The position numbers were made by a program, and so were the translations under genes. Shown here in pieces: positions 1 through 7,760 of a stretch of 7,760 nt of DNA (positions are counted from its first letter, which is position 1; the number at the start of each line of letters is the position of its first letter). The stretch comes from an uncultured Porphyromonas sp. (GTDB lineage Bacteria; Bacteroidota; Bacteroidia; Bacteroidales; Porphyromonadaceae), in assembly GCA_946997275.1 (NCBI GenBank), contig CAMPUN010000040.1, forward strand, positions 1 to 7,760, read 5' to 3'. Under the pieces are notes generated by a model that did no database searches, was not told the DNA's origin, and worked only from the letters and a program-made list of their open reading frames with translations.

Positions 1-1532
1 TGATCAAAGAGGAGGAGGAAAGCTTCCTACGCACCCTCGCTCAGGGACTCAAGCTTCTGTAAAGCAAAATCCAAGAGCTACCTCAAGACGCAAAAGTTCT
101 ATCGGGTGCCGACGCTTTCGTCCTGTACGACACCTACGGCTTCCCACTAGACCTCACGGAGTTGATCCTTTCGGAGCGTGGCATGACGCTCGACCAGGTT
201 GCTTTTGACAAACTGATGCAGGAGCAGAAGCGCCGTGCCCGTCAAGCAGCAGCCGTTGATGCTGCCGACTGGGAAGTCCTCGACGAGGAGACCACTGAGA
301 GCACCTTCGTAGGCTACGAGACGCTCCAGATCGAGACGCATATCCTGCGCTACCGCAAGGTGGCCGACAAGAAGCACAGCTACTATCAGGTGGTACTGGC
401 GGAGACTCCCTTCTACGCTGAGATGGGTGGTCAGGTCGGTGACAAGGGCGTGCTGATCGCCCAGGACGGCACCGAGTACCCGATCCTAGACACCAAGCGG
501 GAGAACAACCTCACCGTCCATATCCTCTCCACCCTCCCTGCAGATCCCAAGCAGCCGCTCATCGCTCGTGTCGGGGCTGAGCTACGTCACCTCACGGAGG
601 CAAACCATACAGCGACGCACCTGATGCACCACGCGCTGAGAGCCGTGCTCGGCACTCATGTAGAGCAAAAGGGTTCGCTCGTTTCGGCAGACCTACTGCG
701 CTTTGACTTCTCACACTTCAAGAAGTTGACTCCCGAAGAGATTGCCGAGGTAGAGCGTCTGGTCAATGCGGAGATTCGTGCCGACAGACCTCGTGACGAG
801 CATCGCAATGTGCCGATTGCTCAGGCTAAGGAGATGGGTGCGATGGCACTCTTTGGCGAGAAGTATGGCGACGAGGTACGTGTCATCAAGTATGGCGACT
901 CGGTTGAGCTATGCGGTGGTACCCACGTGGCTAGCACAGGGCAGATAGGCTTTTTCAAGATCATCAGCGAGGGCTCTATTGCCGCCGGTATCAGACGTAT
1001 CGAGGCGGTCACGGGGCCTAAGGCGGAGGAGTATGTACACCATCTGGAGGAGCAGTTGCAGCTCTTCAACGAGCGACTCAACAATGTGCCCGATCCGCTC
1101 AAGGCGCTAGACCGACTGATTGCCGAAAGTGCCGAGCAGCGCAAGGCTATCGAGCAGTACACCAAGGCTCAGGCGGAGCAAATAGCTCTGCAGGCTCTAG
1201 CCGATCAGACGAAGCATGGCGAGACATCCATCGTCACCGTCAATAAGTCAATGAGTAGCGACGTCGCTAAGGATGTCGCAGGCACCATCCGCGAGCGACT
1301 ACAGGGCTCTTACCTAGCGCTCATCGGTGCTGCCGAGGAGGGCAAGTGCACCCTCACGGTAATCCTCTCGCCAGACCTTGTCGACAAGGGGCTCAACGCA
1401 GGCAAGCTCATCAAGGAGGTCGCCTCGCTCATCAAGGGCGGGGGCGGTGGTCAGCCTCACTTTGCAACGGCTGGTGGACGCAACCCCGAGGGGCTCCAAG
1501 CAGCCATCGACCATATCGTCTCGCTGATTTAG
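1..1532 (+). CDS. alaS: Alanyl-tRNA synthetase, C-terminal part; cut by the left edge and interrupted by an in-frame TAA
   Basis: AlaRS charges tRNA-Ala with alanine in the cytoplasm and hydrolyses mischarged Ser/Gly-tRNA-Ala. The reading frame runs from position 3 to the TAG at 1530-1532, about 510 codons of a protein usually near 870 residues, so most of the catalytic domain lies left of the window. In order one sees IKEEEESFLRTL, the conserved block YDTYGFPLDLTEL (126-164), the editing domain, and the C-terminal DHHA1-type domain with its glycine run (GGGGGQPHFATAGG, about 1437-1480). The editing-site zinc ligands are intact: HTATH at 606-620 and CGGTH at 912-926. A TAA at 60-62 interrupts the frame while homology continues on both sides. 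An open frame from TTG 162 exists, but starting there would lose the conserved YDTYGFP block, so it is not a credible native start. The family assignment is certain. Whether the gene is functional is not: the stop could be a base-call error or a real nonsense mutation. aroB follows 11 nt downstream. Confidence 0.95.
60..62 (+). other. In-frame TAA stop inside alaS
   Basis: Reading frame 3 gives GLKLL-stop-SKIQELPQ, with recognisable AlaRS sequence before and after in the same frame. No frameshift is needed to explain it. One substitution from a sense codon (for example GAA, CAA or AAA to TAA) is enough. Glu is my guess for the ancestral residue, from memory of AlaRS homologues. Confidence 0.85.
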
Positions 1533-2685: not shown

Positions 2686-2775
2686 AGTTCCAAAAAGGGT
2701 TCCCTTCTTGGAACTTTTTAGTTCCAAGGGAGGAACTCTTCGGTTCCTCGGTAGGAAACTCTAGGTTCCTCCGCA
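2686..2775. repeat. Array of short palindromes with a 22-nt period (GGAAC-loop-GTTCC)
   Basis: GTTCC starts at 2687, 2699, 2721, 2743 and 2765. GGAAC starts at 2710 and 2732, and the variant GGAAAC at 2754. The last three units therefore repeat every 22 nt, each a small hairpin: CTTGGAACT / AGTTCCAAG (2707-2715 with 2720-2728, TTTT loop), GAGGAAC / GTTCCTC (2730-2736 with 2743-2749) and AGGAA / TTCCT (2753-2757 with 2766-2770). AGTTCCAA also occurs at 2686-2693, so the 2708-2715 arm can pair either upstream or downstream. Arms are conserved while loops and linkers vary, which suggests that structure matters. It lies 48 nt after aroB. No T-tract follows any unit. The function is unknown: it could aid transcript-end processing, be a protein-binding array, or be a dispersed intergenic repeat. 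Confidence 0.75.
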
Positions 2776-2801: not shown

Positions 2802-2847
2802 GACAGCCCCCACGGGTTTCTAGTCGTAGAGAGCCGTGGGGGCTGTC
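2802..2847. terminator. Probable bidirectional transcription terminator between aroB and hmuV
   Basis: GACAGCCCCCACGG (2802-2815) and CCGTGGGGGCTGTC (2834-2847) form a perfect, GC-rich 14-bp stem. The 18-nt loop can pair further (TCTA 2819-2822 with TAGA 2827-2830), giving a long rod. It lies between two converging genes, where a shared terminator is expected. Neither side has a strong T-tract; only ATGATTT follows on the plus strand. It is therefore not a textbook intrinsic terminator, and the termination role is inferred from position and stem strength. Confidence 0.65.
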
Positions 2848-2936: not shown

Positions 2937-3275
2937 TTACTCCTCGGGGATGTAGATGACCTCGCCATTCTCCAGCTCGTAGGCGATGCCGACGCGCTTG
3001 CCTCGGCGCTGACTGGAGGCGTCCTCGCTGTCGGTCGGTGTGTACCGCTCGATGGTGGAGCCTTTCTTGGAGATGATCTCCATATTGTCCTTGCCAGGGT
3101 TCTTGATGATGGTAAAGTCCTCCTGCGTGAGCATCTCGGTCATGCTAAACTTCGTGACCAGTGCCACCATGAGTGCCACGGCAAAGACCATCGCCACGTC
3201 AAAGAGGTTGCTCACGAGCGATGATGGATCGGTGTCATCGTGGCGCAGTGTGCGTCGCTTACTTCTTCGTCTCAT
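2937..3275 (-). CDS. hmuV: HmuV, DUF2149-type membrane protein, ExbD/TolR-like
   Basis: A 112-residue protein and the last gene of the operon. A basic N-terminus (MRRRSKRR) is followed by one membrane helix at about residues 24-41 and a hydrophilic C-terminal domain of about 70 residues ending in IYIPEE. This is the layout of ExbD/TolR/MotB-type partners: short cytoplasmic tail, one helix, periplasmic domain. The start of the helix, LFDVAMVFAVALM (24-36), resembles the FIDVMLVLLIIFM segment of ExbD as I recall it. It places Asp26 at the position of the essential proton-carrying Asp. The name rests on synteny with the Porphyromonas hmu locus and on DUF2149-like appearance. The ExbD analogy is my inference from the motif and from the hmuU gene next to it. 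The ATG at 3275 lies inside hmuU, a 17-nt overlap that suggests translational coupling and matched stoichiometry. Confidence 0.85.
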   Translation of the reverse strand: MRRRSKRRTLRHDDTDPSSLVSNLFDVAMVFAVALMVALVTKFSMTEMLTQEDFTIIKNPGKDNMEIISKKGSTIERYTPTDSEDASSQRRGKRVGIAYELENGEVIYIPEE

Positions 3276-3876
3276 CTTCAGCTTGGGTTAGGAGTTCGTC
3301 GATGTAGTCGATGTAGATGAGCTCTTGGTGGTGATAGCGGTGGAGTCTCTGCAAGGTTAGATAGCCGATGGCGGAGACGAAGAGTCCCAGCACGGTGGTT
3401 GCAAAGGCGACCTGCATATTGTACGCCATGGTCGCCATATCGCCACTGCTAAGCCCGACGAGCGCTGGTCCCATTGGTATGAGGGTACCCATTAGTCCGA
3501 GGATTGGGCCGAACTTGGTCAAGACTTGCGGATAGACGAGTCGCTTGTCGAGGCGTAGCTCATACTCGCCGATGAGTAGGCTACGCTCAGCTGCGGGAGC
3601 CGTGAGGAGCGAGCGCAGGAGCTCCTCAAAGAGGTCTAGCCGAGCTGTCTCTTGGCTTTCACCGCCTAGCTCTTGGCGCAGTCTGCCGAGTAGTGCGCTG
3701 GCGTCTTCACGCTGATGGGAGAAGTAGCGCTGCTGTAGTCGCTTGTAGCGCTGTGCCCGCTCGATGAGTCCGCCCAGCATGAGGAGGGCTAGGAGGAAGA
3801 GTAGGAGTAGTCCAATGATCACCGGTATGAGGAGACCATTGGAGAGGAGAAACATAGTGTCTGAAATGAATTTCAT
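3259..3876 (-). CDS. hmuU: HmuU, MotA/TolQ/ExbB-family proton channel protein
   Basis: A 205-residue inner-membrane protein. Three hydrophobic segments are visible: about 9-37, 122-143 and 155-176. A charged cytoplasmic stretch (about 38-115) lies between the first two, the usual ExbB/TolQ topology. The second segment has ILGLMGTLIPMGPAL (126-140) and the third VAFATTVLGLFVSAIG (156-171). The GLxGT and T-x-x-G-L patterns match the ExbB/TolQ/MotA channel helices. Thr131 and Thr161 correspond to the channel-lining threonines of ExbB. The predicted role is the ring-forming channel subunit that pairs with HmuV and converts proton flow into work on HmuS. Some annotations call HmuU an ABC permease, but nothing here supports that. 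It starts at ATG 3876, 24 nt after hmuT, and ends inside the hmuV start region. Family assignment is firm; the coupling to HmuS is inferred from the operon. Confidence 0.9.
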   Translation of the reverse strand: MKFISDTMFLLSNGLLIPVIIGLLLLFLLALLMLGGLIERAQRYKRLQQRYFSHQREDASALLGRLRQELGGESQETARLDLFEELLRSLLTAPAAERSLLIGEYELRLDKRLVYPQVLTKFGPILGLMGTLIPMGPALVGLSSGDMATMAYNMQVAFATTVLGLFVSAIGYLTLQRLHRYHHQELIYIDYIDELLTQAEDETKK

Positions 3877-3900
3877 AGTAATCTGTTGTGTGTAACTGTC

Positions 3901-4605
3901 TTATTTGCGTGAGCCTTTTGCCTTGATGAGCATGGCTATATAGCCGACGAGCATGCCACCAGCGAGGGTTGCGAGGAGGATGCACAGCTCTCTAGGTGAG
4001 GAGCTGTCTAGCTGGACCTCTGGAGCTTGGGTGCGCTCTGGTATGAGGATGTAGGCTATGACGCTCCCCACGGCTAGCACCCCAGCCAAGAGCATAGCGA
4101 GCAGACGGAGGAACTCCCGATCACGTATCAGGCGAGGTGTTAGCTCGATGAGTAATAGGAGCACCACAGCAAAGGTTATGGTCACTGCCCAGTAATGGAC
4201 CCCAGGCATGCTGTAGATGACGAAGCTCCTCAGGTAGCATAGCGCAGGTAGCATCAGTAGCGAGGGGAGCCATACAGCTATCTGGTGGCAAGCGGTCATG
4301 ACCGCTACGACTAGTCCCTCTCGATGATAGATCGTATGCAGAGGTCGGCGCGCGGGTCGGTAGGTGACGACCGCCATCGTGAGCAGTAGCTCTAGCGAGA
4401 CCATCATGGCGAGTGTGGAGAGCTGCTCCGCCTGTCGTAGCATAGTGTCGAGGGCTAGCTTGCTCACCCGCAGGGTCGCCTGATGGGTCGCCACCAAGCC
4501 TACGATATAGAGTACCGCATGTGCTAGTCGCACCCTACGGTCAGATCGTACGGCTGTGGTGGTGAGCGCTACTAGGAGCGCAAAGATGGAAACGATGAGT
4601 ATCAT
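3901..4605 (-). CDS. hmuT: HmuT, multi-pass membrane protein of the haem-utilisation operon
   Basis: A 234-residue, strongly hydrophobic protein with about seven predicted membrane segments: roughly 1-17, 27-43, 63-81, 97-124, 137-154, 168-187 and 207-227. It ends in a short basic tail (KAKGSRK). I see no nucleotide-binding motif, enzyme signature or known permease signature. The name comes from position alone: it sits between the CobN-like hmuS and the ExbB-like hmuU, as in the Porphyromonas hmu locus. Candidate roles are an inner-membrane scaffold for HmuS, an exit path for the porphyrin or iron product, or a third motor component. Histidines at 41, 89, 94, 107 and 137 could bind haem or metal if they face the periplasm, but this is speculation. 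It starts 3 nt after the hmuS stop, so it is almost certainly cotranscribed and perhaps translationally coupled with hmuS. Confidence 0.75.
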   Translation of the reverse strand: MILIVSIFALLVALTTTAVRSDRRVRLAHAVLYIVGLVATHQATLRVSKLALDTMLRQAEQLSTLAMMVSLELLLTMAVVTYRPARRPLHTIYHREGLVVAVMTACHQIAVWLPSLLMLPALCYLRSFVIYSMPGVHYWAVTITFAVVLLLLIELTPRLIRDREFLRLLAMLLAGVLAVGSVIAYILIPERTQAPEVQLDSSSPRELCILLATLAGGMLVGYIAMLIKAKGSRK

Positions 4606-4608
4606 CTC

Positions 4609-7600
4609 TTACTTCGTACGCTTCTTACGTCTGCTGTAAAGGATGGAGATCACCAGTATGAGGACGATTACGACGCCTCCGATGATGACTATCTCGGTCG
4701 TGGAGAGACTATCCTGATCCTCTGCAGAGGCAGAGCCTGAGGACTGCTTCTTGCCCTGGGTCTTGTCCGAGTCCTTCGAGAGTACCTGCTGCTTTTGGTC
4801 AGACTGTGAGGTCACCTTGAGCGCTTTGTCTAGGGCGGCGGTGTACCCTTGCTGCTGCTCGGGTGTGAGCTGATCTTGGATCATCTTACGCAGCTTAGCA
4901 TTGTCACAGACCATACCGCTACAGCCAGCACCCGCCTTTGCCAAGCTCTCGGCATGGAGCCGAGCGATGGTCTGCTTTTGCTCTGCAGTCGCCTGCCAGT
5001 ACCCCTTGCGAATGGTCTCCATCATGGAGGCGGTGAGGTCTTGCAGGGCTGCGGGGTTGTTTCGCTCGAAGAAGTCGACCGTGCCGAGCTGATGCTTGTC
5101 CACGACATACATATCGTAGAGGGCATCCCAGAGCTCCTTGTCGATGGCGGAGGGCTTCATAACGTTCCACGCATAGGTATTGCGGATGGTCTCGTCGATA
5201 GCATCTGCCGCTCCAGCGCCCTCTTTGAGCTGCTCACGCACATAGGTGGGGTTGAGGATGGTGGTGCGAGCTTCGATGCCGATAGCTTGCTTGATCTCCT
5301 GCGTCTTGACACGACGACGGTTGCGCAGATCGGTGAAGTAGCCCTCGGGATCCTTGCCTGTGACGTGACGTACGGAGAGGGTGAGCCCGCCCATAAACTC
5401 ATAGACGTGATCCAAGCTTAGCGCGCCCCACGTATTGCTCTGACGGGGCTGAACGACGGCATCCGTGTTTTGCAGTGCCGCCTCAAAGATTCCCTTGGCG
5501 GTCTCGCCCCAGAGCTCTTCGTCTCCATAGATGGCGCCCATATTGTTCATATAAACCTCGGCAATCTCGCTCTCTTTCTCCCAGCGGTCACCGCTCTCGA
5601 CCATCTCTTGAATGCCAGTACCGTAGGCACCGTTGAGACCTCCGAAGATGCGCTTGCCGCTAAGCTTACGAGCCTGCTCGGGGGGTACGCCATGCTCTAG
5701 GAGCACACGCTCCGCCTCGACACGTCCGAGGGCTATCTGGTTGGGAGTCTTGCCATCCTTGGTCTCTGCGACGAGGTCCATAGCCTTTTGCAAGAGGAAA
5801 AGTCGGGAGGCTGCGATGTCTCGGAGTTGGCCCGAGGTCTGTATGACCACATCCACACGAGGTCTGCCGAGCTCCTTGATGGGAATGACGCGCACGTCGA
5901 TCACCTTACCACGGCGGTCACGCACGGGCTCGACACCGAGGAGCGCCATAATCTCAGCGATGGTGGTGCCCTCGCTCTCGATGAAGCTACTGCTCCAGAG
6001 CGTGAAGCTCACCTTGCGGGGTATCGAGTCGTTGTGACGAGAGCGGTAGTCAGCGATAAGCGCATCGGCTAGTTGCTGTCCATCTTCCCACGCCTTTGCT
6101 GTGGGCGTCATCTCGGGATCAATGGCGTAGAGGTTGCGCCCTGTGGGTAGTACGGAGGGACTAGCGATGAAGTCTCCGCCTGGTGAAGGTGCCGTATAGC
6201 CACCACTAAGCGCATTGGCGAGCGAAGCCAGCTCAATCTGTGGCGAAGTGGCCAGCATTCGCTTGTAATATGGTATCTGCGCTACGGAGCGACGTAACAG
6301 ACTGATACCCTCGGCGAGGAGTACCAGCTTGGGGTCTTTCTTCGTCTCGGCACTGGCGGGCTTGCCGTGAGGAGGCATACCGCCACCCATACCTTTGGGC
6401 ATTCCCTTTGGCATACCTTTAGGCATATCCTTTGGCATTCCCTTTGGCATACCTTTAGGCATATCCTTTGGCATTCCCTTAGGCATTCCACCGCCCATCA
6501 TACCTGCAGGCATACCGCCCATCATATCAGTCTGTGCGCTCTCCTCTTGTTGTGCCTTGAGGAACTGATCGGCACGAGCTAGCTCGGCGCGACTAACGCC
6601 TAGCGACTGAATGAGCGCATCGACCTCTCCCGAGGCAATCTCCCGATCCTGAACACGAGCCACGAAGCGGTCGGCAGGACGGAGGTAACGAGCGTTGAAG
6701 TAGACATCGTCCTTGATCTGAGCGTCGGTGATCCGTCCGCGAGACTTGTCCACCTGAGCCAGTGCATAGGCTATTGGGTCGACCGAGAGGAGGCGGACAC
6801 TGGAGCGGATCTTCTCCGAGGAGAAGGGGACGCCTGTCGTGTACATACCGCCCACTATCTTAGCATTGGCTAGCTCGTCGACGAAGCTGGCGATTAGCTC
6901 AATCTCGTCTCTCGTGTAGGGCTTGCTCATCGTGGAGTCTAGCTTCAGATCTCTGTGAAAGCCCTTAGCGATGGTCATCTCTTTGATCCGCTTGGAGAGG
7001 GCGTCGTCATCTTTTTCCGAAGCTAGATAGCGATCGGTCAAATCGCGTAGCGGTTGCATCTCTTTGTCTAGCTGCGTATCGATAAAGGGCGGAGCCAAGT
7101 AAGAGACCGCCTGCCCGTAGGAGCGACGCTTGGCGATCATACACTCGCCGACATTTGCTGTCGTATAGTAATAGATGTGTGGCAGATCACGTACGAGCCT
7201 ATCGGTGTAGTCGTAGTTGCTCAGCGCTACCTGCTTGCCGGGGATAAACTCCAGACTGCCGTGCGTACCGAAGTGCATCAAGACATCAGCGTGCCAGCCG
7301 TTGCGAGCCCACAAGTAGCTGGCTATGTATGGGTAAGCGGGCACGGAGGTGGAGCCATGCACCATCTTGAAGTCTAGCTCTCCGCTACCAGAACCGGGCT
7401 GAGGTAGAAGCGCCACCTTACCATAAGTGAGTCGGGTCACCGCAATGCCCTCGACACCGTCACGCTCTAAAACGAGGTCGTGACCAGGTATCGCCCCGTA
7501 GCGACCCTCTATACTGTCTTTGAGTGCAGTAAGGAAGGTATCGTCGGTCCACTGCGTCAGCTCTTTCGTCGAGACAAAGGCGGGGTAGTTGCTACTTAGG

Positions 7601-7760
7601 AGCAGTTGCTTATTGCCCTCCGCATAGTTGTTGTAGAGTGCGCCACGAGACATCAGATCCTTGGCAAAAGCCTCCTCCGTGTCGGGCAAGCCTGTCAGGT
7701 CGTACCCTTGGCTCTGTAGATACTTCAGAACATTGTAGAGCGAGGGCACTACCTCGATGC
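4609..7760 (-). CDS. hmuS: HmuS, CobN/Mg-chelatase-like haem-processing protein, N-terminus outside the window
   Basis: About 1,050 residues are visible. The frame stays open to the right edge, so the GTG at 7747-7749 is internal. CobN/HmuS proteins usually have 1,250-1,450 residues, so a few hundred, including any signal peptide, are missing. Numbering from that GTG, CobN-family blocks are HADVLMHFGTHGSLEFIPGK (153-172), with candidate metal-site residues His159, His163 and Glu167, then RPRVDVVIQTSGQLRD (629-644), GLNGAYGTG (704-712) and DHVYEFMGGL (780-789). A Cys pair lies at 943 and 948 (GCSGMVC). After a polar linker (about 985-1015) come one membrane helix (about 1019-1038) and the basic tail SRRKKRTK. 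This predicts a periplasmic body anchored in the inner membrane. Real CobN inserts cobalt into hydrogenobyrinate with CobS/CobT, but no cobalamin genes are nearby and the partners are hmuTUV. HmuS of Bacteroides has been reported to remove iron from haem without oxygen; that is recalled knowledge, not shown here. A Met-Pro-Lys repeat occupies 409-460. Confidence 0.9.
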   Translation of the reverse strand, partial: IEVVPSLYNVLKYLQSQGYDLTGLPDTEEAFAKDLMSRGALYNNYAEGNKQLLLSSNYPAFVSTKELTQWTDDTFLTALKDSIEGRYGAIPGHDLVLERDGVEGIAVTRLTYGKVALLPQPGSGSGELDFKMVHGSTSVPAYPYIASYLWARNGWHADVLMHFGTHGSLEFIPGKQVALSNYDYTDRLVRDLPHIYYYTTANVGECMIAKRRSYGQAVSYLAPPFIDTQLDKEMQPLRDLTDRYLASEKDDDALSKRIKEMTIAKGFHRDLKLDSTMSKPYTRDEIELIASFVDELANAKIVGGMYTTGVPFSSEKIRSSVRLLSVDPIAYALAQVDKSRGRITDAQIKDDVYFNARYLRPADRFVARVQDREIASGEVDALIQSLGVSRAELARADQFLKAQQEESAQTDMMGGMPAGMMGGGMPKGMPKDMPKGMPKGMPKDMPKGMPKGMPKGMGGGMPPHGKPASAETKKDPKLVLLAEGISLLRRSVAQIPYYKRMLATSPQIELASLANALSGGYTAPSPGGDFIASPSVLPTGRNLYAIDPEMTPTAKAWEDGQQLADALIADYRSRHNDSIPRKVSFTLWSSSFIESEGTTIAEIMALLGVEPVRDRRGKVIDVRVIPIKELGRPRVDVVIQTSGQLRDIAASRLFLLQKAMDLVAETKDGKTPNQIALGRVEAERVLLEHGVPPEQARKLSGKRIFGGLNGAYGTGIQEMVESGDRWEKESEIAEVYMNNMGAIYGDEELWGETAKGIFEAALQNTDAVVQPRQSNTWGALSLDHVYEFMGGLTLSVRHVTGKDPEGYFTDLRNRRRVKTQEIKQAIGIEARTTILNPTYVREQLKEGAGAADAIDETIRNTYAWNVMKPSAIDKELWDALYDMYVVDKHQLGTVDFFERNNPAALQDLTASMMETIRKGYWQATAEQKQTIARLHAESLAKAGAGCSGMVCDNAKLRKMIQDQLTPEQQQGYTAALDKALKVTSQSDQKQQVLSKDSDKTQGKKQSSGSASAEDQDSLSTTEIVIIGGVVIVLILVISILYSRRKKRTK
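6389..6484 (-). repeat. 12-bp tandem repeat (36-bp higher-order unit) encoding [G/D]-M-P-K repeats in HmuS
   Basis: Eight consecutive 12-bp units run from 6389 to 6484. On the plus strand they follow the pattern AT(A/T)CCCTTTGGC and near variants. Units 6401-6436 and 6437-6472 are two identical 36-bp copies of a three-unit block, so the array grew recently by duplication. On the coding strand each unit reads GMPK or DMPK, in the order G-G-D-G-G-D-G-G. Flanking sequence is also Met/Gly-rich (MMGGMPAGMMGGG on one side, GMGGGMPPHG on the other). Since 12 is a multiple of 3, slippage changes length without breaking the frame. Confidence 0.95.

What the first reader, a model, noticed from the sequence alone, without database searches (positions are those of the whole stretch)
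2937..7760. A chelatase-family enzyme coupled to a proton-motive-force motor (HmuS with HmuT, HmuU, HmuV)
Seen: a CobN-like protein with a single C-terminal membrane anchor is cotranscribed with an ExbB/TolQ/MotA-type protein, an ExbD/TolR-like protein and a seven-helix protein, with overlapping or nearly touching genes. Known: CobN normally works with the AAA+ ATPase pair CobS/CobT, and HmuS has been linked to anaerobic haem use in Bacteroidota. Inference: here the AAA+ motor is replaced by a proton-driven ExbB/ExbD-type motor that powers removal of iron from haem (or opens the enzyme for porphyrin release) on the periplasmic side of the inner membrane. This would be a mechanistically distinct route to iron from haem, different from haem oxygenases.
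Basis: partly seen in the sequence, partly recalled or inferred. Interest (0 to 1): 0.75.

Follow-up and report, generated by a model that had tools for sequence, protein, structure and literature searches.

The report
Proton-driven motor for heme-stripping enzyme
Close to the gene for a predicted heme-iron-stripping enzyme lie two genes for a predicted proton-channel pair that is likely the enzyme's own motor rather than a helper of outer-membrane import, because related genes sit together in methane-making archaea in which no outer-membrane receptor of that type was found.

Summary
On the minus strand lie hmuS (cut by the window edge), hmuT, hmuU and hmuV, 3 and 24 bases apart and then overlapping by 17. 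HmuS matches the solved heme dechelatase and keeps four catalytic residues. HmuU is an ExbB/TolQ/MotA relative; HmuV is DUF2149, not ExbD, but keeps the membrane acid. HmuS dechelation is published; the three papers whose passages on HmuUV I read give the pair to TonB-dependent import or heme transport. My comparison favours HmuS as client. In 45 of 46 bacterial and 24 of 39 archaeal loci found through DUF2149, a CobN-like gene lies close by on the same strand. ExbD and TonB-receptor barrels were found in none of 37 archaeal host genomes; canonical ExbD in 39 of 39 bacterial hosts. A C-terminal membrane helix marks 59 of 63 linked CobN-likes but 1 of 12 comparison CobN/BchH ORFs. Against: purified HmuS works alone for 1-2 turnovers; three bacterial loci hold TonB without canonical ExbB/ExbD; six archaeal loci have the pair without CobN. 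So the motor probably drives loading or porphyrin release, not iron removal. Verdict: partly supported; new variant of a known kind.

The parts
4609..7758 (-). hmuS, CobN-type heme dechelatase, N-terminus cut off by the window edge
   Evidence: ORF; PF02514 777 bits; best PDB match 9d26 HmuS, 1020 bits
4636..4695 (-). C-terminal membrane helix of HmuS, followed by SRRKKR
   Evidence: sequence; Kyte-Doolittle 3.21 in the last 60 aa
7261..7263 (-). codon of His166, equivalent of catalytic His538 of B. thetaiotaomicron HmuS
   Evidence: alignment to 9d26 and column counts; role from PMC12583661
7144..7146 (-). codon of Glu205, equivalent of Glu577
5407..5412 (-). codons of Asp783-His784, equivalents of Asp1208-His1209
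6358..6525 (-). methionine-rich insertion of HmuS (repeated MPKG/MPKD units)
   Evidence: sequence; a methionine-rich insertion is described for HmuS in PMC12583661
3901..4605 (-). hmuT, 7-8 helix membrane protein in the permease slot
   Evidence: ORF; model pLDDT 71; distant profile match of its family to DUF2162
3259..3876 (-). hmuU, MotA/TolQ/ExbB-type proton-channel subunit
   Evidence: PF01618 42 bits; Thr131 and Thr161 conserved; tree
2937..3275 (-). hmuV, DUF2149 subunit: one membrane helix plus a small extracytoplasmic strand domain
   Evidence: PF09919 112 bits; model pLDDT 65
3198..3200 (-). codon of Asp26 in the HmuV membrane helix, the presumed proton carrier
   Evidence: acidic in 89 of 89 aligned rows; role recalled from ExbD
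2802..2847. strong hairpin between the 3' ends of hmuV and the aroB-like gene, possible terminator; it has no T-run and is not among the terminator-like sites
   Evidence: 21-nt arms; -36.9 kcal/mol, z -6.5 on the minus strand

Best explanation
HmuU and HmuV are likely a dedicated proton-driven motor for HmuS, a membrane-anchored CobN-type protein that is predicted to strip iron from heme outside the cytoplasmic membrane. Proposed working: HmuU (ExbB-like ring) and HmuV (membrane Asp helix) let protons through. The motion is passed, through the HmuV outer domain and/or the C-terminal helix of HmuS sitting at the ring, to HmuS. There it would open the head/neck or cleft so that heme is loaded and protoporphyrin is let go. 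HmuT would be the membrane exit or entry for metal or tetrapyrrole. Shown here: gene content, conserved proton-path residues, topology signature, linkage in bacteria and archaea, no detected Ton parts in the archaea. From the literature: dechelation by HmuS, NADH need, no ATP need. Inferred: physical complex, use of the proton gradient, which step is driven.
For: Linkage, in loci chosen by DUF2149 and not by CobN: a same-strand CobN-like gene near the pair (within 1.5 kb, except 3.6 kb in L005) in 45 of 46 bacterial and 24 of 39 archaeal loci; 9 of the 15 archaeal misses are short or cut contigs. No Ton system detected in the archaea: ExbD 0 of 37 genomes, receptor barrel 0 of 37, DUF2149 37 of 37 as positive control. 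Canonical ExbD in 39 of 39 bacterial hosts; four loci carry a complete ExbB-ExbD-TonB set besides HmuU-DUF2149-CobN (L003, L030, L040, L052). Topology: C-terminal helix in 59 of 63 linked CobN-likes against 1 of 12 comparison CobN/BchH ORFs. Proton path: HmuV acid 89 of 89 rows, HmuU Thr131 85 of 85, Thr161 79 of 85. HmuU-type proteins form one side of a 99/96 branch. AAA+ partner: CobT in 1 of 76 hosts; none of CobS/CobT found in T. lovleyi (PMC3403914 passage). Biochemistry: recombinant HmuS stops after 1-2 turnovers; P. gingivalis inner membranes stimulate HmuS, E. coli membranes much less (PMC13227078 passages); ATP is not needed.
Against: Purified HmuS makes protoporphyrin without HmuUV. 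A B. fragilis btuS1 btuS2 double mutant still released protoporphyrin (PMC6460266 passage). TonB-receptor genes lie in 26 of 46 bacterial loci, and in three (L011, L016, L017) a TonB gene lies in the locus with no canonical ExbB/ExbD in the stretch held. Six archaeal loci have the pair with room but no same-strand CobN; in L049 and L078 the neighbours are NosD/DUF11-type secreted proteins. A Cupriavidus CobN-like with a C-terminal helix has no DUF2149 anywhere on its 2.5-Mb record. A published survey lists 981 species with R, T, U, V but no detected HmuS. 33 of 37 archaeal hosts have strong ChlD-like AAA+ hits. The 78 genome loci are the best 80 of 425 by similarity to one query, not a random sample. 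I saw no interaction or protonophore data in the papers read; the HmuV model is weak.
Confidence: 0.55

Rival explanations
1. HmuU and HmuV are an ExbB/ExbD variant that, with a TonB encoded elsewhere, powers the outer-membrane heme receptor HmuR; HmuS works alone. This is the published model.
For: Stated for B. thetaiotaomicron. TonB-receptor genes in 26 of 46 bacterial loci by my profile. In L011, L016 and L017 a TonB_C protein lies in the locus without canonical ExbB/ExbD in the stretch held. Purified HmuS is active alone.
Against: Related pairs with CobN exist in methanogens with no detectable receptor barrel or ExbD. All 39 bacterial hosts have canonical ExbD, and four loci have a full second ExbB-ExbD-TonB set. 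HmuV lacks the ExbD domain. Bacteroides ihuae, a control genome, has ExbD and receptor barrels but no DUF2149.
Confidence: 0.2
2. HmuT, HmuU and HmuV form a proton-driven inner-membrane transporter for heme, porphyrin or metal, and HmuS merely feeds it.
For: A DUF2162 gene is found in 31 of 39 archaeal loci. An ORF of 195-260 aa, counted by size alone, directly precedes HmuU in 20 of 46 bacterial loci. A Runella locus among hydrogenase genes has a protein with sub-threshold NicO/DsbD_2 matches in that slot. P. gingivalis authors presume that HmuTUV moves heme.
Against: In 18 of 46 bacterial loci CobN directly precedes HmuU, with no permease in between, so the lasting core is CobN-HmuU-DUF2149. 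Growth of B. fragilis on heme iron needs FeoAB.
Confidence: 0.17
3. The pair is a general motor for extracytoplasmic membrane-anchored clients; HmuS is one client, TonB and archaeal surface proteins are others.
For: Archaeal loci L049 and L078 with HmuU-DUF2149 beside NosD/DUF11 secreted proteins, in L078 also a TPR-DUF2162 protein; three bacterial loci with TonB but no canonical ExbB/ExbD in the locus.
Against: 45 of 46 bacterial loci have the CobN-like gene.
Confidence: 0.08

Closest known systems
HmuS heme dechelatase of Bacteroides thetaiotaomicron (PDB 9d26, 9p4s; PMC12583661)
   Same: Family, enzyme part seen from residue ~376 on, His538/Glu577/Asp1208/His1209 equivalents, methionine-rich insertion, C-terminal anchor
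   Different: The paper assays HmuS alone and gives HmuUV to the receptor; a motor role is not proposed in the parts that I read
ExbB-ExbD-TonB / TolQ-TolR-TolA / MotA-MotB proton motors
   Same: Channel-type subunit with conserved Thr residues; partner with one membrane helix carrying an acidic residue
   Different: HmuU is on its own well-supported branch with the motif LGLMGTLIP(M/L)GPAL; HmuV is DUF2149, not ExbD; the usual neighbour is a CobN-like protein
CobN-CobS-CobT and ChlH-ChlI-ChlD class I chelatases
   Same: CobN-type large subunit
   Different: HmuS-type proteins carry a C-terminal membrane anchor and sit by a proton-channel pair, not by AAA+/VWA genes
P. aeruginosa PA1922-PA1925 (Zur regulon, PMC9431628 and PMC4542158 passages) and the T. 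lovleyi plasmid cluster (two cobalamin riboswitches)
   Same: Receptor, CobN-like, ExbB-like and DUF2149 genes together
   Different: Regulation points to zinc or cobalamin rather than heme, so the substrate probably varies

Membership tests
HmuS heme dechelatase | CobN/Mg-chelatase domain closest to solved HmuS | tested here: met
   PF02514 777 bits; 9d26 1020 bits against 315 for the next match, ChlH
HmuS heme dechelatase | Catalytic-site residues His538, Glu577, Asp1208, His1209 | tested here: met
   window residues 166, 205, 783, 784
HmuS heme dechelatase | Heme site 1 (Met79, His254) and N-terminal signal/helix | not testable with these tools
   Upstream of the window edge; no genome held
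HmuS heme dechelatase | C-terminal membrane helix | tested here: met
HmuS heme dechelatase | NADH-dependent heme to protoporphyrin activity | not testable with these tools
   Known for the B. thetaiotaomicron protein
MotA/TolQ/ExbB (HmuU) | PF01618 over cut-off | tested here: met
   42.1 bits, cut-off 22.9
MotA/TolQ/ExbB (HmuU) | Channel Thr residues in the last two helices | tested here: met
   Thr131 85 of 85 rows, Thr161 79 of 85; roles recalled from E. coli ExbB
ExbD/TolR (HmuV) | PF02472 domain | tested here: not met
   No PF02472 hit; PF09919 DUF2149 instead
ExbD/TolR (HmuV) | Single membrane helix with acidic residue | tested here: met
   Asp/Glu in 89 of 89 rows; helix 17-50 in the model
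Ton energiser of an outer-membrane receptor | Occurs only where TonB receptors exist | tested here: not met
   0 of 37 archaeal host genomes have the receptor barrel, 0 of 37 ExbD; genome completeness not told
CobNST / ChlHID chelatase | AAA+ partner | tested here: inconclusive
   CobT 1 of 76 hosts; ChlD model over its cut-off in 1 of 76, strong E-values (under 1e-40) in 33 of 37 archaeal and 2 of 39 bacterial hosts; the window's own genome is not held
DUF2162 transporter (HmuT) | PF09930 match | tested here: inconclusive
   No direct Pfam hit; profile-profile probability 93 over 124 columns

The most novel reading that the evidence does not exclude
A proton motor of its own class, HmuU plus DUF2149, spread beyond the outer-membrane world, drives extracytoplasmic CobN-type (de)chelatases in bacteria and methanogenic archaea: a mechanical, ATP-free way to load, open or empty metal-tetrapyrrole enzymes, with heme, cobalamin, nickel and zinc versions.
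Probability: 0.42. Interest if true: 0.88.

Novelty: new variant of a known kind. Interest (0 to 1): 0.72.

Why it matters
How an enzyme of the CobN type works where there is no ATP, and why purified HmuS stops after 1-2 turnovers, are open. If the pair is the missing part, it explains both, re-assigns two genes that are strongly induced in iron-starved gut and oral bacteria, adds a client other than TonB, TolA or the flagellar motor to the ExbB/TolQ/MotA motors, and gives a functional lead for DUF2149, DUF2162 and the unplaced archaeal CobN-like proteins.

Tried and rejected
Structure of HmuV: model pLDDT 65, too weak to search. Structure of HmuT: pLDDT 71; Foldseek has no match at E <= 0.001, and the second look gives only middling Z, 7.7 at best, common for helical bundles, so no fold is claimed. 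Gene fusions of CobN with HmuU or DUF2149: none in loci L001-L086 with my profiles. Viral contig scans: nothing. PDB sequence search with the DUF2149 profile: nothing; with the HmuU profile: only weak matches, best E 0.0098, to MotA and TolQ. RNA families in the window: none, even at E <= 1. Riboswitch as substrate clue: cobalamin aptamers in L003 and L085 only, of 16 sources, the window among them. A complex prediction of the four proteins was not possible with the tools. The idea that AAA+ genes are simply missing from all hosts was rejected for the archaea. The HmuT-DUF2162 comparison and the Pfam scan of the slot used alignment A8, in which row L073 was read in a wrong frame; A10 corrects it, but neither was repeated. 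In the HmuU column counts two of the 84 rows besides the window are canonical ExbB (L040, L052); the tree took only HmuU ORFs of 150-320 aa, and its program warns that long branches meet. Completeness of the host genomes was not told by the tool and many are MAGs, so the zero counts rest on genomes of unknown completeness. The genome loci are the best-scoring ones for one central query and hold few Bacteroidota (L028, L036, L046).
Full report
What is in the window. The minus strand holds hmuS (4609-7758, cut by the window edge), hmuT (3901-4605), hmuU (3259-3876) and hmuV (2937-3275), separated by 3 and 24 nt and then overlapping by 17 nt. The plus strand holds the C-terminal part of alaS and an aroB-like gene, both named from recall, followed by a strong hairpin at 2802-2847. 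HmuS is a CobN-type protein (PF02514, 777 bits) whose best solved relative is the B. thetaiotaomicron HmuS heme dechelatase 9d26 (1020 bits). The residues equivalent to His538, Glu577, Asp1208 and His1209 are all present (window residues 166, 205, 783, 784). HmuU is a MotA/TolQ/ExbB protein. HmuV is DUF2149 and gives no ExbD hit.

What is already known. HmuS as an NADH-dependent, ATP-independent heme dechelatase is published (PMC12583661: abstract, sections 11 and 12, part 1 of the Discussion, and passages read). That paper draws HmuU and HmuV as the drivers of the receptor HmuR and calls the function of HmuT unclear. A 2023 paper says the same (PMC10100974: passages and section 12). A 2026 P. 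gingivalis paper presumes that HmuTUV moves heme across the inner membrane and 'cannot exclude' an effect of HmuT, HmuU and HmuV on HmuS activity (PMC13227078: parts of the abstract and passages). For P. aeruginosa PA1924 a place in the TonB pathway is suggested (PMC4542158 passage), and the T. lovleyi cluster is read as transport (PMC3403914 passages). I found no statement that an ExbB/DUF2149 pair drives a CobN-like protein in the listings or in the passages read. The library is open-access only.

Test 1: which gene travels with the pair? Loci were found by DUF2149, not by CobN: seven plasmid loci fetched of eight hits and 78 loci from the genome scan, which kept the best 80 of 425 relatives. 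All 85 were examined. A CobN-like gene of at least 150 codons lies on the same strand near the pair in 45 of 46 bacterial loci, within 1.5 kb except in L005 (3.6 kb); the one miss, L016, is a 4-kb contig. In archaea it is there in 24 of 39 loci. Of the 15 archaeal misses, nine lie on contigs that are short or end at the side where relatives carry CobN (L041, L042, L047, L051, L060, L061, L071, L074, L079); six have room and no same-strand CobN (L039, L049, L058, L062, L069, L078). L069 has only a 163-codon CobN fragment on the other strand. In 18 of 46 bacterial loci CobN directly precedes HmuU with no permease in between.

Test 2: can the pair serve TonB? The 37 archaeal genomes behind the 39 archaeal loci (two genomes hold two loci each) have ExbD in 0 of 37, the TonB-receptor barrel in 0 of 37 and DUF2149 in 37 of 37. 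Their completeness is not told. Among the bacterial hosts, canonical ExbD is in 39 of 39. Four bacterial loci carry a full canonical ExbB-ExbD-TonB set besides HmuU-DUF2149-CobN: L003 as annotated, L030 by Pfam for all three, L040 and L052 by Pfam for part of the set (ExbD in both, TonB in L052) and by my profiles and the tree for the rest. Against this, L011, L016 and L017 carry a TonB_C protein with no canonical ExbB/ExbD in the stretch held, and 26 of 46 bacterial loci carry a TonB receptor by my profile. The pair therefore is not bound to a Ton system, but it may act on TonB in some bacteria.

Test 3: topology. Of 63 DUF2149-linked CobN-like ORFs of at least 900 aa with an intact C-terminus, 59 have a C-terminal hydrophobic helix (Kyte-Doolittle mean at least 1.6 over 19 residues in the last 60). 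The others are L026 (1.57), L006 (just under 1.6), L005 (1.26) and an interrupted ORF in L066. As a contrast I fetched 11 plasmid loci that I picked from 60 listed of 159 records with a HmuS-like match. They hold 12 CobN/BchH-type ORFs; 11 have no C-terminal helix, and where the record is annotated their neighbours are AAA+/VWA, cob or bch genes. The twelfth, in the unannotated Cupriavidus record (L100), has the helix but there is no DUF2149 on the whole 2.5-Mb record. P. gingivalis authors likewise predict end helices for HmuS and none for CobN or ChlH. An extracytoplasmic CobN-type protein cannot meet a cytosolic ATP-driven partner; this step is reasoning from topology. CobT is in 1 of 76 host genomes. 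ChlD-like AAA+ hits are strong (E under 1e-40) in 33 of 37 archaeal hosts but only in two of 39 bacterial hosts, G062 and G076; the ChlD model's cut-off is passed in 1 of 76. So absence of AAA+ genes is not general.

Test 4: is the pair a working proton channel? The HmuV membrane acid is Asp in 88 and Glu in 1 of 89 rows. HmuU Thr131 is kept in 85 of 85 rows and Thr161 in 79 of 85. That these match the proton-path residues of ExbD and ExbB is recalled, not computed. In a tree of 88 rows, 80 HmuU-type proteins lie on one side of a 99/96 branch from eight canonical ExbB, TolQ and MotA proteins; the program warns of long branches. HmuU-type proteins share the motif LGLMGTLIP(M/L)GPAL.

Substrates probably differ. 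The Bacteroidota operon is iron-regulated (PMC10434189 passages). The T. lovleyi operon has two cobalamin riboswitches upstream and L085 one. A Runella operon lies among hyp hydrogenase genes with a protein of sub-threshold NicO/DsbD_2 similarity in the HmuT slot. The P. aeruginosa operon belongs to the Zur regulon (PMC9431628 passage; PMC4542158 passages). Across 69 CobN-like rows the His538 and Glu577 positions are kept in 66 and 69, but Asp1208 and His1209 only in 45 and 29, which fits varied substrates or chemistry. Two BtuS copies rise with certain iron sources in Methanosarcina barkeri (PMC10846266 passages).

Most likely working, with marks. Known: HmuS dechelates heme with NADH; purified protein lacking its end helices stops after 1-2 turnovers, 27 uM product from 20 uM enzyme. 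Known: P. gingivalis inner membranes stimulate HmuS, and E. coli membranes do so much less. Inferred: HmuU and HmuV form the ring-and-axle motor; the C-terminal helix of HmuS and/or the HmuV outer domain takes up the motion; the motion serves loading of heme or ejection of protoporphyrin and resetting. Not supported: that the proton gradient is needed for iron removal itself. HmuT is a membrane protein of unresolved fold with a glutamate (Glu72) that is invariant in the 13 rows of A12 and nearly so in the 16 of A10; its family has a distant profile match to DUF2162 (probability 93).

Weight. I give 0.55 to HmuS as the main client of HmuUV, 0.2 to the published Ton reading, 0.17 to a HmuTUV transporter and 0.08 to a general multi-client motor. 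The result is a new reading of known genes, with a simple knock-out test in a commensal laboratory strain.

Noticed in passing
window 3-1532 (+): The alaS reading frame has an in-frame TAA at 60-62 near the window start; the frame is otherwise open to 1532. It may be an assembly error or a broken copy; described only.
   Followed up: partly
window 2686-2757: Cluster of overlapping palindromes built on GTTCC/GGAAC between the aroB-like and hmuV genes.
   Followed up: partly
L039, L049, L058, L078: Methanophagales/Methanosarcinales MAGs carry HmuU-DUF2149 pairs without CobN. Pfam shows NosD/DUF11-type secreted neighbours in L049 and L078 and DUF2162 proteins with an N-terminal extension in L039 and L078; L058 and the rest of L039 look alike by eye only. 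Possible other clients of the motor.
   Followed up: partly
L004:1752-16010: In Runella the pair, a permease-like protein, a TonB receptor and a CobN-like gene sit inside a hyp hydrogenase maturation cluster, suggesting nickel.
   Followed up: partly
L003:4960-5426: Two cobalamin riboswitches in tandem upstream of the T. lovleyi receptor-DUF2162-HmuU-DUF2149-CobN operon.
   Followed up: yes
L043, L057, L075, L083: Some methanogens carry two CobN-like genes in tandem after DUF2149.
   Followed up: no
L102:17628-21716 (-): Cupriavidus CobN-like protein with a C-terminal helix next to another CobN without one, with no DUF2149 on the record.
   Followed up: partly
P0001: A 180-aa DUF2149 protein with an internal duplication of the membrane helix region.
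   Followed up: no
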